Shown here in pieces: positions 55,440-61,105 of a stretch of 64,000 nt of DNA. Source of the stretch: an uncultured Gemmata sp. (GTDB taxonomy: Bacteria; Planctomycetota; Planctomycetia; Gemmatales; Gemmataceae); NCBI GenBank assembly GCA_937924775.1, contig CALDUT010000010.1, forward strand, positions 434,001 through 498,000, given 5' to 3'. The notes beneath the pieces are model-generated. The model was not told the DNA's origin, ran no database searches, and saw nothing but the letters and a program-made list of their open reading frames with translations. Made by a program: the position numbers and the translations under genes. The stretch's first letter is position 1. The number at the start of each line of letters is the position of its first letter.

Positions 55440-56603
55440 TCAGCATACTTTGTTTCGGCTGTCCGAGTTATTTGGGGTAGATGTAGTATGACCGACATGC
55501 AGTGTGTGTGGTAACTGAACAATTTGCCTTCCGATCAGTTTGGGGTTCTCGAGAGCGCGGAGCAGGATCTGCGTCGCCGTACGGCCCATCTGATACCAAT
55601 CAGTCTGGTGGCAGGTGAGGCCAGGAATCTCCTCGCCGCCGGCCCCCATCACGCTGAGATCTTCCGGTACCCGTATTCCGCGTCGTCGCAGTTCCTCGAT
55701 GGCATAGCCCGCCAAGGTATTGTTGAAGCAGTACAAGGCCGTCGGAGTGGGTTTCAAGGTCAAAAGGCGGTCAACCAAGCGCCTGGCTCCGACTTCGGTT
55801 AACTCGGTCAGAATCTCCCACTGTCTGCGCCGGTACAATCCCGCGTCACGCATGCCTTTGCGATAACCCAAGGGACGTGACGGATTCATTTCGGCACGGT
55901 CCCAGTGTGCATAGGCAATGCGGCGATGTCCGAGCTGAGCCAGATAGCGGATAGCCTGGAGGGCACCCTCGAGAGAGTCGTCGCGGACAGAGGAGATGCC
56001 TGATACCGTCGTATCCTCGTCCAGCAGGACGGTCGGCAAGCCTGAGGCGACTAATCGCCGCAGCATTTTTTCTTCCTGATAGGAGACGCAAATTAATCCC
56101 TGCAAGTGTGCGCTATCGGCCAGTGCTTGGACGACCCTGCGCCATTCTTGGGTCGTCGTTCGTGTCACCATGAGTTGAAACCCAGCGAGAGCGGCCTCCT
56201 CCAACGCTCCCTGCAACATGCGGCCACTGATCGCGCGGTTCGCCACCTCTTCATGCCCTTGTGCATCCAGAAAGTCAGTTTGCAGGTAGCCGATGACTCT
56301 TGTCTTGGAACTCCGAATCCTGCCGATCTTGGGTGGTCGCGTGAAAGTCCCCCGGTGGCGAATCTTGACAATCAACCCATCGCGCTGGAGCGCTTCCGCA
56401 GCCAGTCGCACTGTCTCGCGACTCACTCCCAGTTGTTCGGCCAACTCGACTTCCGTGGGGAGTTTTCCCTCCGGAAAGCGCTCCTCGGCGATCGCCTGGC
56501 GCAGGGCCTGCTCGACTTGCGTTACCATGCTCGGCGGCCGGATGACGCGCTGAAGCAACGATCGCGTTCTCCGTGCCGTTCTCGCTTTTCTCTGGTTTGG
56601 CAT
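55440..56603 (-). CDS. GntR-type HTH with LacI-like sugar-binding domain, regulator
   Basis: A 387-residue DNA-binding regulator. The N-terminal GntR winged helix has VTQVEQALRQAIAEERFPEG, LPTEVELAEQLGVSRETVRL and ALQRDGLIVKIRHRGTF. The rest (about residues 85-375) is a periplasmic-binding-protein-like sensor of LacI/GalR type: RVIGYLQTDFLDAQG, MLQGALEEAALAGFQLMV, the GLICVSYQEEKMLRRLV block and DDSLEGALQAIRYLAQLGHR. This AraR/LacI-GntR hybrid class responds to a sugar. ATG at 56603 has GGGGG ten bases upstream; an upstream ATG at 56624 is less likely. It is divergent from the large exported protein gene. Confidence 0.88.
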   Translation of the reverse strand: MPNQRKARTARRTRSLLQRVIRPPSMVTQVEQALRQAIAEERFPEGKLPTEVELAEQLGVSRETVRLAAEALQRDGLIVKIRHRGTFTRPPKIGRIRSSKTRVIGYLQTDFLDAQGHEEVANRAISGRMLQGALEEAALAGFQLMVTRTTTQEWRRVVQALADSAHLQGLICVSYQEEKMLRRLVASGLPTVLLDEDTTVSGISSVRDDSLEGALQAIRYLAQLGHRRIAYAHWDRAEMNPSRPLGYRKGMRDAGLYRRRQWEILTELTEVGARRLVDRLLTLKPTPTALYCFNNTLAGYAIEELRRRGIRVPEDLSVMGAGGEEIPGLTCHQTDWYQMGRTATQILLRALENPKLIGRQIVQLPHTLHVGHTTSTPNNSDSRNKVC

Positions 56604-56637
56604 CGCACAAGCCCCCTGGCTCATCCGAATTTGACAA

Positions 56638-56666
56638 GTTATACAACCAGTCTGTCTATCCAACAA
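56638..56666 (-). promoter_or_regulatory. Candidate promoter of the GntR-type regulator
   Basis: On the minus strand TTGTTG (56661-56666) and TATAAC (56638-56643) are 17 bases apart, a sigma-70-like pair with a good -10. It is 35 bases upstream of the ATG at 56603, consistent with that start. The same span has imperfect inverted repeats and could be an operator for both directions. Confidence 0.35.
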
Positions 56667-56805: not shown

Positions 56806-58920
56806 ATGCGAATTCGATCTGAGCTGTCGCTGTTGTTTCTCTTGGCCGCGTCCCTGGTGGTTCAGGGGCAAACTACTGCACCCAACCCCCGAGTGGAGGT
56901 CCGCCCCAATCGTGAGGGACACGCTGCTGCCGATCGGTTTCCTCGAGAGTTGGTCGATTTCGTTCCCGATCCCCCGAAACCCGTCTTCAGCGGTGCCGGA
57001 CCGGGGCACTGGGATATTCGCATCCGTGAACGTGGTTGGATTCTGCGCGACGGAGACTTGTACCGCATGTGGTACACTGGCTTTGAACGAGACACTAGCC
57101 CGCTGTTAAAGCTCGGTTACGCCACCAGTCCCGATGGCATCCACTGGACTCGCCACGATAAGAACCCCATCTACGACGAACACTGGATCGAAGACATGAT
57201 GGTGGTCCGGCACAAGGACACCTACTACATGTTCGCCGAAGGAAAAGGCGACCAAGCGCAGCTCTTGATCTCAGAGGACGGAATCAAGTGGAAACGGGTT
57301 GGTCAACTTGATGTGCGGAAGAAGAATGGTGAGCCGATCGAGCCAGGTCCCTACGGCACGCCCACCGCGTGGGTGGAAAACGATGTGTGGTATCTGTTCT
57401 ACGAGCGTCGCGACCTCGGCATTTGGTTGGCTACTTCCAAGGATATGAAGGTTTGGACCAATGTTCAGGATGAGCCGGTCATCACGTTGGGTCCGGGCGA
57501 GTACGACAAGGAGCAAGTCGCGCTCAACCAGATCATCAAGTATAACGGCCGCTATTACGCCTACTACCACGGTGCGGGAGCGCCACTGCCGGGCACTCGG
57601 AAGCGGTTGTGGTGTACCTGCGTCGCTACGTCCAAGGATCTCATCCACTGGGAGAAATACGACAAGAACCCGCTGTTCCCGCTCGAGGAGAACAAATCGA
57701 GCGGCATCCTTGTTCATGACGGCCAGCGGTTCCTGCTATACACGATGCACGATCAAGTGGTTCGCCATGTGCCACGCGAGGAAGCGACGATCCAGCCGCC
57801 TGGCTCGGGGGCTGGCAAACGAGCCTCGGCCACCCGGCCGTTGCCGATCGCCGGGGTTGGGCCGAAAATCAAGGACGCCACCATCACGGGGCCAACATTC
57901 CATGCCCCGGACCTCCTTCACAGTTTTGAAGAGTACGACAACCCGCGTCTCAGACGATTGCGTGAGGAATATCAACTGGAAAAGGTCGTCGCCGACGAAC
58001 CAGATGAGTTTCGCCGCATTCTGAAACTCCGACACTGGGTTCACGGACGTTGGAAATTCGATTTCGATCAGAATTTCAAGGGCGACGCCTTCGCCATCCT
58101 GGAAAAAGCGAAAACCGGCTGTGGCTTTAATTGCGCCCATGCCATGACGGTCCAACATGCCGTGATGTCATCGATGGGATACGTTTCGCGCTATGTCCAT
58201 GTGGATCGCAACCACGAGGATTTGGGCGGTAGCCGGCATCATGGTGTCAATGAAGTCTGGTCGAATGATTACGCCAAATGGGTAATGCTCGATGCCCAAT
58301 ACGATGCACACTTCGAACGGGAAGGTGTACCGCTCTCGGCTCTGGAATTACATGAAGCCGTGCGAACTGATGGTGGGCGTGGCGTCGTTTTAGTCCGCGG
58401 CGTCGAACGACGTGAGGTCCCGATGGCTCCGAAGACCGGTCCACAGCCCCACGAAGCCACGATCTACAGTTATTGGTGGGTCTGTTATCCGCAACGGCAG
58501 AACCCCTTCTCGCAACCGCACTTTACCACGCGCGAACGATTGCTCATCTTCGACAACGAGGCATTCCGCAAAACCACATGGTATCGCGGTCCGGCGAACG
58601 ATTTGAGAAAACACTTCGCCTACGCGGCTAAGGCGTTCGTGCCGACCGACGATCGAACTCAAATCGAGTGGACGCCGGGCGTGCCTGAGTTACGAGTTCG
58701 TCAGGTTGGACCTGCTGAATTGGACGTCGAATTTCGCAGCGCCACGCCGAACTTTCAGGCCTATGTGATTCGGATCAATGGCGGCGATCCGAGCCTGTGC
58801 GAAGACGGCCGCCTGCGTTGGAAAATCGAACCCGGTGACAATTCGCTTCAAGTGCAATGCCGCAACCGTTTCGGTATCGATGGTCCCGTTGTCACTGCTC
58901 GCGTCACGCGGCAGCCGTAA
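56806..58920 (+). CDS. Exported five-bladed propeller fused to a transglutaminase-like domain
   Basis: A 704-residue protein with a signal peptide (LLFLLAASLVVQGQ). Residues ~60-350 form a GH43/GH32-type five-bladed propeller, with recurrent 'YRMWYTGFERD', 'GYATSPDGIHWTRHDKNPI', 'WYLFYERRDLGIWLATSKD' and 'SKDLIHWEKYDKNPLFP' strands. Residues ~400-565 are transglutaminase-like: GFNCAHAM (Cys442), SRHHGVNEVW (His478/479) and WVMLDAQYD (Asp496) line up with the papain-like Cys-His-Asp triad. A beta domain ends the chain (ELDVEFRSATPNFQAYVIRI). Glycan binding joined to peptide-bond or isopeptide chemistry suggests action on a glycoprotein or peptidoglycan-linked polymer; that is inference. GGGAG precedes the ATG by eight bases. 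Confidence 0.8.
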   Translation: MRIRSELSLLFLLAASLVVQGQTTAPNPRVEVRPNREGHAAADRFPRELVDFVPDPPKPVFSGAGPGHWDIRIRERGWILRDGDLYRMWYTGFERDTSPLLKLGYATSPDGIHWTRHDKNPIYDEHWIEDMMVVRHKDTYYMFAEGKGDQAQLLISEDGIKWKRVGQLDVRKKNGEPIEPGPYGTPTAWVENDVWYLFYERRDLGIWLATSKDMKVWTNVQDEPVITLGPGEYDKEQVALNQIIKYNGRYYAYYHGAGAPLPGTRKRLWCTCVATSKDLIHWEKYDKNPLFPLEENKSSGILVHDGQRFLLYTMHDQVVRHVPREEATIQPPGSGAGKRASATRPLPIAGVGPKIKDATITGPTFHAPDLLHSFEEYDNPRLRRLREEYQLEKVVADEPDEFRRILKLRHWVHGRWKFDFDQNFKGDAFAILEKAKTGCGFNCAHAMTVQHAVMSSMGYVSRYVHVDRNHEDLGGSRHHGVNEVWSNDYAKWVMLDAQYDAHFEREGVPLSALELHEAVRTDGGRGVVLVRGVERREVPMAPKTGPQPHEATIYSYWWVCYPQRQNPFSQPHFTTRERLLIFDNEAFRKTTWYRGPANDLRKHFAYAAKAFVPTDDRTQIEWTPGVPELRVRQVGPAELDVEFRSATPNFQAYVIRINGGDPSLCEDGRLRWKIEPGDNSLQVQCRNRFGIDGPVVTARVTRQP

Positions 58921-58984: not shown

Positions 58985-60132
58985 ATGTGTCTCTGCCTCT
59001 TAAATGCTACCGCGAGCGTGGGGAGAAAAATCCTCATGGGTTTTCTTTTCACTGGCATTTTCATTACGACAACTCCAGTGGTCCAAGGGCAAGAGAAAAC
59101 GCCCGTTCCTCGTAATCAGCTTTCACCCAAAGAAGAATCGAAGAAGGACAAGCCGCTCGATGACCTCAAGGATCGCAAGGAACCCCGCAAACTGCTGCAT
59201 TGTGACGAATTTGAATACGAGGTGAAGCAGGACGAGATCGACAAGAATCCGGCGTTCATCACTCAGGAGAAATGGCAGGCTGTCAAGGCGATCAATACCG
59301 GCCGTAACGCAGCCGGATACATTTACACGGTCGATCGCATCCCCGGCTACAAAGGTAAGTTCCCTGGCCATAACTCAAAACGAGTCTTGGCCATCGAGGC
59401 CCCTCCGGGAAAGTTTCAGACCCAGACCAGCCTACACCTGCAACTCGGCGATGCCAATGGCCCACCCAATCAGATCCCGGGCGATGTGTGGTTTCAGTTC
59501 TGGATCTACTTGAACTACTACGACGACCCGGAGGACAAAGAAGATCAGCTCAGTGGCATCACGGGCGGTAAGTTTTTGTATCCCAGCGTGGATGGACGTT
59601 ATCCAGCCCATCCGCTGTGGTTGTTTACGATCCATCATCACAGCTACGTCTTCCCCATGGGCGAGAAGGCACCGCGTGAACTTGAAGCGAAATCATATCA
59701 AGAAACGTTCTTGCAGACGGAATCGACTAGTCCTGAAGGACCCTATGCCAACATCAAGAAGGGGCCGGATTACAATCGCTGGAAAATGGGCCAGACGAAT
59801 ATCGATGAGCGGATTGTCGCCAATCGCTGGATATTGGTGAAACTGCGCTTCGACACTTCGACGACATCCGCCAAATATACGAGGCCTGGTTACGGCCGCT
59901 CGGCGGCAAGACGGTAAAAGTTGCGGAGTGGATTGACGGGGTGACTCCCGACTTCTCATGGAAAATACCTCAGGACAAGGTTGGCGGCCACAAAGTACTG
60001 TGCATGCCAACGACTCTCGGTGCATATTCCAGCTGGGGAGATCGCGCGAAGAATAACAAAGACGCCTGGATCTACCTGGATGACTTTGCGATGGCGAAAA
60101 GCGAAGATGTGCTGCCGAAGTATTCTGAGTAG
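58985..60132 (+). pseudogene. Exported lectin/lyase-like protein, frameshifted
   Basis: ATG at 58985 follows AAGGAG. A signal anchor (ILMGFLFTGIFITTTPVVQG) and a basic linker precede a jelly-roll-like body: LLHCDEFEYEVKQDEIDKN, LAIEAPPGKFQTQTSLHLQL, PGDVWFQFWIYLNYYDDPED and ANRWILVKLRFDTST. At 59850-59872 the frame changes: RQIYEAWLRPLGGKTVKVAEW and PDFSWKIPQDKVGG follow, and the final strand KDAWIYLDDFAMAK and end DVLPKYSE close the domain. The next gene encodes a similar jelly roll, so the join is sensible. Either a genuine lesion or a single sequencing error. Function: probable polysaccharide binding or lyase-like. Confidence 0.6.
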
Positions 60133-60190: not shown

Positions 60191-61105
60191 ATGTTAACTA
60201 CGCGTTGTCTTGTCCTGAGTTTATTATGGATCACCGCCTTACCCGTGGCTTGGGCGCACGCTCAAGACACGGGGCTGGCGGCCAAGTACCCGAATGACGC
60301 CGGTATCGGCCGCGATCCGGCTGTGCTCTTCCACGACGACTTCGAGGACGGCAAGATCGGTGCGAAGTGGGACGAGATCAATCGCCGCAAAAGCCGCACG
60401 GCCACCGACAACACGGACCCTATTGCGGCCGAGACGGACAAAGCTATCGTTCGGGGCCAACGCACGGCTAAGGTGCAGATCCGCAAAGGGGGCCACGAAG
60501 ACGTCACTTTCGTGAAGTGGCTCAAGCCCGGGCACGACGAACTCTACATGCGACACTACGTCCGCTATGGCCAGGACTACGGCTATCACAGCCACGGCGG
60601 CAGCGGCTTCATGGCCGACGCCGGCAAGGGAGGCTTCAAGGGGGCAGGCAAAGCCCCCGACGGCGACAAGTTCTTTTGGGCCACGTTGGAACCGATCGGC
60701 AGCCCCGGGCGCTGGCCTTGGGATCCGCCCGGTGCACTCATTTTCTACGCCTACTGGTGGAAGATGAAGCCCGATGGACGCGGCAACCATTGGGGTAATT
60801 GGTTCCAGCCCAAGCCCGATCAAGTCCCCAAGCGGGAAACCTGGGTCTGCATCGAATGGAGAGTGAAGGCAAACACGGCCGGCAAGGACGACGGCGAGTT
60901 GGATTGCTGGATCGACGGCAAGAAGTGTGGTGAATTCCGCAACATCAACTGGCGATCCACGAACGATTTGAAAGTGAATAAGGTGCAACTGTCGCTGTGG
61001 CTGGAATCGGACAAGTACGAGAAGTCCGGTGGTGGCACAACACGCACCGTCTGGTACGACGATGTTGTTGTCGCCACGAAATATATCGGTCCGAAAGTGC
61101 CGTGA
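60191..61105 (+). CDS. Exported concanavalin-like/polysaccharide-lyase-like protein
   Basis: A 304-residue secreted protein with a signal peptide ending in WAHAQ. One jelly-roll domain starts with LFHDDFEDGKIGAKWDEINR and ends with GTTRTVWYDDVVVATKYIG. Between them are DELYMRHYVRYGQDYGYHSH, ALIFYAYWWKMKPDGRGNHW, GNWFQPKPDQVPKRETWVCI and GELDCWIDGKKCGEFRN strands, as in lectin-like glucanases and PL14/PL20-like lyases. The aromatic-rich HSHGGSG and WNxF/YWWK patches may bind sugar; I cannot assign a cleavage site. ATG at 60191. It follows the related frameshifted gene by 58 bases and precedes the cytochrome gene by 48. Confidence 0.65.
   Translation: MLTTRCLVLSLLWITALPVAWAHAQDTGLAAKYPNDAGIGRDPAVLFHDDFEDGKIGAKWDEINRRKSRTATDNTDPIAAETDKAIVRGQRTAKVQIRKGGHEDVTFVKWLKPGHDELYMRHYVRYGQDYGYHSHGGSGFMADAGKGGFKGAGKAPDGDKFFWATLEPIGSPGRWPWDPPGALIFYAYWWKMKPDGRGNHWGNWFQPKPDQVPKRETWVCIEWRVKANTAGKDDGELDCWIDGKKCGEFRNINWRSTNDLKVNKVQLSLWLESDKYEKSGGGTTRTVWYDDVVVATKYIGPKVP

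What the first reader, a model, noticed from the sequence alone, without database searches (positions are those of the whole stretch)
56806..58920. Propeller-transglutaminase fusion with an intact Cys-His-Asp triad
A GH43/GH32-like five-bladed propeller followed by a transglutaminase-like domain in one exported chain is an unusual pairing. Cys442, His478/479 and Asp496 line up with the catalytic triad. It could cut or crosslink a peptide near a bound glycan, for example in a glycoprotein or peptide-linked cell-wall polymer.
Basis: partly seen in the sequence, partly recalled or inferred. Interest (0 to 1): 0.65.

Follow-up and report, generated by a model that had tools for sequence, protein, structure and literature searches.

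The report
Exported propeller–transglutaminase-fold fusion enzyme
A planctomycete gene really does weld a sugar-enzyme-type propeller to a cysteine enzyme domain with a complete active site, next to a likely sugar-sensing switch; both halves belong to known families, and only their joining, which looks rare, is new.

Summary
ORF 56806-58920 (+) encodes 704 residues: signal-like N-terminus, five-bladed propeller of the GH43/GH32/GH130 kind, variable linker, transglutaminase core, C-terminal beta domain. The triad is Cys443 (not 442), His479 (not 478) and Asp496. In 44 family rows that cover it, Cys and His are 44/44, Asp 42/44 (two Glu).

The propeller alone is widespread in the same class; the transglutaminase module alone is scattered through the phylum, with the fused module's closest kin in another class. 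I found three complete fusions, in three families, plus one copy truncated before the Cys. Propeller and core are under purifying selection; the linker much less. A conserved inverted-repeat site (56634-56659) lies upstream in 4 of 4 fusion loci, and a divergent GntR/LacI-type regulator in 3 of 4.

Best reading: an exported, regulated enzyme whose propeller recognises, perhaps trims, a glycan while the cysteine domain more likely cuts than crosslinks an attached amide. Substrate and chemistry are inferred. AlphaFold failed on the transglutaminase half, so that fold rests on profiles. The propeller is GH130-related but under the GH130 cut-off. A new combination of known families; interest moderate.

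The parts
55440..56603 (-). Divergently transcribed regulator, GntR N-terminal domain + LacI-type sugar-binding domain; likely start at 56603, not the mechanical 56807
   Evidence: Pfam GntR 51.9 bits and Peripla_BP_3 86.9 bits; start inferred from alignment with L005 and L008
56634..56659 (+). Operator-like site ACAAGTT-N2-ACA-N7-TGTCTAT with inverted ACA/TGT half-sites
   Evidence: Conserved in 4 of 4 fusion loci; one site in the whole genome at up to 1 mismatch; one match in the window at up to 2 mismatches and none in 100 shuffles. The pattern was read off these same four loci
56806..58920 (+). Fusion gene, 704 aa
   Evidence: complete relatives L005 and L006
56806..56871 (+). Signal-peptide-like N-terminus, about residues 1-22
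   Evidence: Hydrophobic 12-residue stretch, mean Kyte-Doolittle 2.68; no dedicated predictor was run
56926..57780 (+). Five-bladed propeller, residues 41-325, GH43/GH32/GH130-like; invariant residues include R74-E75-R76, E129-D130, E145, E200-R201, N241-Q242, H255, H315
57781..57921 (+). Linker, residues 326-372, fast-evolving
   Evidence: dN/dS 0.18-0.44 against 0.04-0.06 for the propeller
57922..58365 (+). Transglutaminase-like core, residues 373-520
   Evidence: PF01841 matched in 18 of 18 family members at E up to 0.1
58132..58134 (+). Cys443, nucleophile position
   Evidence: 44/44 covering rows
58240..58242 (+). His479, catalytic histidine position
   Evidence: 44/44 covering rows
58291..58293 (+). 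Asp496, third triad position
   Evidence: 42/44 covering rows, Glu in 2
58366..58917 (+). C-terminal region found with the core in the 18 aligned family members; residues ~627-702 predicted as a small beta sandwich
   Evidence: family alignment; block pLDDT 54-77 over this part
59036..59917 (+). Downstream protein (signal-like start, by eye) conserved next to the complete fusions; its frame ends early in the window
   Evidence: homologues directly downstream in L005 and L006; the homologous C-terminal stretch lies in another frame
60191..61105 (+). Polysaccharide-lyase-14/Cip1-like protein, under both cut-offs; the gene after the truncated fusion in L008 passes the cut-offs of PL14 and PF14099

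Best explanation
This is an exported two-enzyme chain made by fusing a secreted GH43/GH32/GH130-like propeller, typical of the class, to a transglutaminase-fold module whose nearest kin lie in another planctomycete class. Shown by sequence: the fusion, the intact triad, purifying selection on propeller and core, and the conserved operator-like site (4 of 4 loci) and regulator (3 of 4). Inferred: the regulator releases the gene when a sugar is sensed; the propeller's signal sequence exports the chain; the propeller binds and probably cleaves a glycan end; the Cys443-His479-Asp496 domain attacks a nearby amide (peptide, isopeptide or glycan-amide) through a thioester, more likely hydrolysing than crosslinking it. 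The substrate would be a glycoconjugate such as a glycoprotein or a peptide-linked polymer.
For: Triad 44/44, 44/44, 42/44; PF01841 matched in 18/18 members. dN/dS 0.04-0.06 for the propeller in 6 pairs, 0.03-0.10 for the core in the 3 of 6 pairs where dS is not saturated, 0.18-0.44 for the linker. Charged propeller residues invariant in 39 sequences; nearest solved fold GH130 (Z 20.9, rmsd 3.1, 242 aligned). Site in 4/4 fusion loci and once in the genome; regulator beside 3 of the 4 and in none of 20 propeller-only neighbourhoods. Lyase-like neighbours. The preference for hydrolysis is a judgement: PMC4866520 (passages) names the superfamily transglutaminase-like cysteine proteases but lists transferases too.
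Against: No activity or substrate evidence. The transglutaminase fold could not be modelled (pLDDT 42.1). No PDB chain matches its profile at E up to 1, so substrate class cannot be read from a relative. Near relatives often lack a signal-like stretch: 9 of 9 of L037-L045 and 2 of 3 of the sister modules, one of those cut by a contig end, so the native role may be intracellular. G492 has a complete fusion and the site but no regulator match. L008 has lost the triad yet keeps the propeller, site and regulator. L007, 85% identical in the propeller, has no transglutaminase part. Proteins of the regulator's broad cluster also lie in three transglutaminase-only neighbourhoods (L104, L109, L111), so the regulator type is not unique to the fusion.
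Confidence: 0.42

Rival explanations
1. The propeller is a non-catalytic glycan-binding module that only aims the cysteine domain.
For: Where the aligned Teth514 GH130 enzymes have an Asn, an Arg and the PR of EDPR, this family has R76, T91 and other residues. It is under the Pfam cut-off for GH130.
Against: Many charged residues are invariant in 39 sequences, including D130, which aligns with the Asp that is invariant in GH130; standalone copies are widespread, which suits an enzyme.
Confidence: 0.25
2. The cysteine domain crosslinks: it attaches the propeller, or another protein, covalently to the cell surface or wall.
For: The Cys-His-Asp order is that of transglutaminases and the chain has a signal-like start.
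Against: No acceptor or partner was identified, though none was searched for systematically; no profile match to any crosslinking enzyme of solved structure.
Confidence: 0.15
3. The two domains act on different steps of one pathway and were joined only for co-expression and shared export.
For: Linker free to vary; G440 and G419 carry a propeller and a transglutaminase-family gene as separate genes on different contigs.
Against: Three complete fusions with high constraint on both halves; this does not by itself show a shared substrate.
Confidence: 0.15

Closest known systems
GH130 beta-1,2-oligomannan phosphorylase Teth514_1788 (PDB 9fj8/9gph) and related GH130 enzymes
   Same: Best sequence-profile and fold match of the propeller (GH43 and GH32 rows score only slightly lower); the E-D pair (E129-D130), an Arg (R201) and a His (H255) align
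   Different: An Asn, an Arg and the PR of EDPR in the aligned enzymes are not kept; under the GH130 cut-off; fused, with a signal-like start
Transglut_core superfamily (PF01841)
   Same: Near-complete profile match with Cys-His-Asp in order; matched in 18 of 18 members
   Different: No PDB chain matched by sequence profile at E up to 1; carries its own C-terminal domain
Standalone transglutaminase modules of family f15 in another class (L035, L100, L036)
   Same: Sister group of the fused module (SH-aLRT 99), 35-38% identity
   Different: No propeller
Larger relatives such as L149 (1105 aa)
   Same: Same transglutaminase module at the C-terminus
   Different: A different N-terminal region in which Pfam names nothing

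Membership tests
Transglut_core (PF01841) | Profile score over curated cut-off | tested here: met
   32.6 bits, cut-off 23. Among relatives, 5 of 9 scanned fall under the cut-off
Transglut_core (PF01841) | Cys-His-Asp triad in that order | tested here: met
   C443, H479, D496; 44/44, 44/44, 42/44
Transglut_core (PF01841) | Papain/transglutaminase-like fold | tested here: inconclusive
   AlphaFold mean pLDDT 42.1 with three sequences
Transglut_core (PF01841) | Amide hydrolysis or transamidation | not testable with these tools
   needs purified protein
GH130 | Five-bladed propeller fold | tested here: met
   Z 20.9, 242 residues aligned to 9fj8; model confidence moderate in this part, low beyond model residue 263
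GH130 | Invariant Asp (D142 of BT3780), next to a Glu in part of the family | tested here: met
   E129-D130 invariant in 39 sequences, aligned to ED of the Teth514 enzymes; role from PMC4599007
GH130 | Sugar-binding Asn74 and Arg89 (BT3780 numbering) | tested here: inconclusive
   An Asn and an Arg of both aligned Teth514 enzymes face R76 and T91; that these are the equivalents of Asn74 and Arg89 is my reading
GH130 | Pfam GH130 cut-off | tested here: not met
   20.4 and 24.9 bits against 26
GH43 | Pfam GH43 cut-off | tested here: inconclusive
   29.1 bits for the whole chain, 32.8 for the propeller alone, cut-off 32.2
GH32 | Pfam GH32N cut-off | tested here: met
   29.6 bits, cut-off 22.1, best stretch 78 residues of a 307-position model
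GH32 | WMNDPNG, RDP and EC motifs (recalled, from no call) | tested here: inconclusive
   The exact strings are not in the translation (read by eye); degenerate forms were not tested
Peptide N-glycanase | Sequence relation to solved peptide N-glycanases | tested here: inconclusive
   No PDB chain of any kind matched the profile at E up to 1

The most novel reading that the evidence does not exclude
A single-chain glycoconjugate-splitting enzyme: the propeller docks on or trims the glycan end and the transglutaminase-fold domain cuts the amide that ties glycan to peptide, a bacterial, exported counterpart of what peptide N-glycanase does, spread between planctomycete families as a small sugar-regulated cassette.
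Probability: 0.12. Interest if true: 0.65.

Novelty: new variant of a known kind. Interest (0 to 1): 0.4.

Why it matters
A fusion with two conserved putative active sites, a neighbouring sugar-type regulator and an identifiable control site gives a concrete handle on an unassigned planctomycete enzyme: the inducing sugar can be sought through the regulator, and a coupled reaction can be tested with two point mutants. It also looks like a case of domain capture between classes followed by transfer between families.

Tried and rejected
Structure prediction: the full chain with six sequences gave mean pLDDT 47.9, usable only in the propeller; the transglutaminase half alone with three sequences gave 42.1, so no fold search was run on it.

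Viral contigs were searched for relatives of the propeller and of the transglutaminase module: none found. PHROGs gave one weak match without a name (E 0.0033).

Gene-neighbourhood link without fusion: of the loci held, none outside the fusion genes carries both profiles. In 45 neighbourhood regions the largest clusters apart from the query genes occur in 9, 6 and 6 regions, so I saw no constant partner; the second six are the regulator cluster (window, L005, L008, and the transglutaminase-only regions L104, L109, L111).

A second, independent propeller-transglutaminase fusion in L149 was considered; its N-terminal region looks propeller-like only by eye and Pfam names nothing there, so it is a lead. 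The sigma-70 scan found 1 site against a shuffle mean of 2.7 and was not used. The repeat finder did not report the operator-like site as an inverted repeat: the half-sites are short and imperfect.

misread loci on the minus strand; and later replace it.

Literature: searches, joining transglutaminase terms with glycoside hydrolase or Planctomycetes terms, listed 1, 0, 2 and 0 papers; none by title or start of abstract describes this pairing, and I opened none of them. Most subscription papers are not held. Passages were read of PMC4599007, PMC4866520 and PMC10318531.

Full report
Observation. The ORF 56806-58920 (+) is real and 704 residues long. Pfam places Transglut_core at residues 392-497 and GH32N/GH43/GH130-type matches in the N-terminal half.

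Domain limits. Matches to propeller-only relatives end at about residue 318-328 and those to transglutaminase-only relatives begin at about 340-378, so the chain is two independent modules with a linker. I used 41-325 for the propeller, 326-372 for the linker, 373-520 for the core and 521-704 for the C-terminal region.

Conservation. Eighteen transglutaminase modules, down to 24% identity to the window, keep Cys, His and Asp invariant (the incomplete rows L036 and L049 were left out). In a wider set of 47 rows, three of which do not reach the triad, Cys is 44/44, His479 44/44 and Asp 42/44 with two Glu; position 478 is His in only 15. In 39 propellers the invariant residues include E75, E129, D130, E145, E200, R201, N241, Q242 and H255; that they line the funnel is my placement from the strand pattern, not from coordinates.

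Selection. Among the window, L005, L006 and L008 (six pairs), dN/dS is 0.04-0.06 for the propeller. For the core it is 0.03-0.10 in three pairs, two of which use only the 58 codons left in L008, and cannot be given in the other three because dS is saturated (dN there 0.06-0.19). For the C-terminal region it is 0.05-0.10 in three pairs, for the linker 0.18-0.44. Synonymous change is high throughout, so the ratios are rough.

Distribution. In 392 genomes of the phylum, 42 match: one (the window's) along the whole chain, 19 in the propeller only (one, G244, by a fragment) and 22 in the transglutaminase part only (my count of its rows; only the two best candidates per genome were scored, so a second gene could be missed). 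With the family profile, 25 of those 392 have the transglutaminase module, G000 being the only one listed as of the window's class (five candidates scored per genome). In the window's own family 22 of 95 genomes match; two, G440 and G419, carry both parts as separate genes on different contigs. In the order 8 of 102 genomes have the module. In the other loci no propeller was found. None of the 18 other genomes of the genus has the module; one, G401, has a propeller alone. A scan of 84,980 species by exact short peptides of the window gave 12 relatives, of which two (L005, L006) are complete fusions and one, L008, is truncated just before the Cys. Such patterns can miss distant fusions.

Origin. 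In the propeller tree the four fusion propellers and one lone propeller (L007) form a group with SH-aLRT support 100; inside it only window plus L006 is drawn, at 86 (39 rows). In the transglutaminase tree (43 of 47 rows; pieces under 130 residues and L008 left out) the three fused modules form one group (100) whose sister is three standalone modules of family f15 in another class (99). One fusion after capture of the module is the simplest reading; L007 would then be a loss or a branch before the fusion. The fused proteins are 77% (L005) and 84% (L006) identical to the window's. PF00133 tRNA-synthetase proteins of the window's genome are 59-74% identical to those of G492 and 49-63% to those of G597; one 30% pair looks like a mismatch of paralogues and is set aside, and some rows are overlapping pieces of one gene. 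That favours transfer of the cassette but is a small sample.

Regulation. A divergent regulator with GntR and LacI-type sugar-binding domains lies beside the fusion in the window, L005 and L008, 70-76% identical to the window's. Its likely start is at 56603. A block ACAAGTT-N2-ACA-N7-TGTCTAT is conserved upstream of all four fusion genes; exact matches occur in no other of the 164 loci then held, apart from repeat fetches of the window and L006, and once in the window's genome at up to one mismatch. The pattern comes from these four loci, so their matching it is by construction. The regulator was not found in G492, which has the fusion and the site, nor in G495, which holds the lone propeller L007 (E up to 1e-10). 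Proteins of the same broad cluster also occur in three transglutaminase-only neighbourhoods, L104, L109 and L111.

Neighbours. The complete fusions share a downstream protein with no Pfam match. The window also has a gene with sub-threshold matches to polysaccharide lyase 14 and Cip1-like families; in L008 the gene after the truncated fusion passes the cut-offs of two polysaccharide lyase families. These are consistent with glycan breakdown, not proof.

Propeller. By profile and by fold (9fj8, Z 20.9, rmsd 3.1, 242 residues, 23% identity; 9gph, Foldseek E 2.4e-11) the nearest solved proteins are GH130 beta-1,2-oligomannan phosphorylases; GH43 and GH32 enzymes reach Z 19.5 and 18.8 in the same list. 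PMC4599007 (passages; section 20) reports that Asp142 of BT3780 is the only potential catalytic acid and is invariant in GH130, that the neighbouring Glu is a Tyr in two subfamilies, and that Asn74 and Arg89 contact sugar. The Glu-Asp pair is kept here; an Asn and an Arg that I take for those two are not. With the GH130 cut-off also missed, I call it GH130-related, not a member.

Transglutaminase half. The family matches PF01841 in all 18 members tested at E up to 0.1, with 5 of 9 longer relatives under the curated cut-off, but no PDB chain by profile at E up to 1. AlphaFold did not fold it. [quoted passage not shown] my preference for hydrolysis is a judgement.

Export. The window protein and 43 of the other 49 propeller rows have a hydrophobic stretch (mean over 2.0) ahead of the domain; 20 of 45 transglutaminase rows do, four of them the fusion rows themselves. 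None of L037-L045 (9 rows) and one of the three sister modules does. This is a crude hydropathy test on stop-to-stop frames. It suggests that the propeller brought the export signal.

Verdict. A conserved, rare fusion of two known domain families with an intact cysteine triad. Its function is inferred, and the interest is moderate.

Noticed in passing
window 59036 to about 60130: The open frame of the gene downstream of the fusion ends early relative to its homologues in L005 and L006; the homologous C-terminal stretch lies in another frame. Could be a sequencing error or a decaying gene.
   Followed up: partly
L008:5908-7215: A fusion copy truncated just before the catalytic cysteine while the regulator, the site and the propeller stay intact.
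   Followed up: partly
L149:2284-5601: An 1105-residue protein ends in the same transglutaminase module but has a long N-terminal region, propeller-like by eye, that Pfam does not name; possibly an independent fusion.
   Followed up: partly
window 56926-58365 against L006: Synonymous difference between window and L006 is lower in the propeller (pS 0.45) than in the transglutaminase core (0.75) of the same gene; for L005 against L006 the two are alike (0.66 and 0.68). Might reflect gene conversion or chance.
   Followed up: no
L101:6770-9118: A standalone transglutaminase-module gene sits next to a protein whose start has a radical-SAM-like CxxxCxxC motif (by eye, motif recalled), reminiscent of sulfatase maturases.
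   Followed up: no
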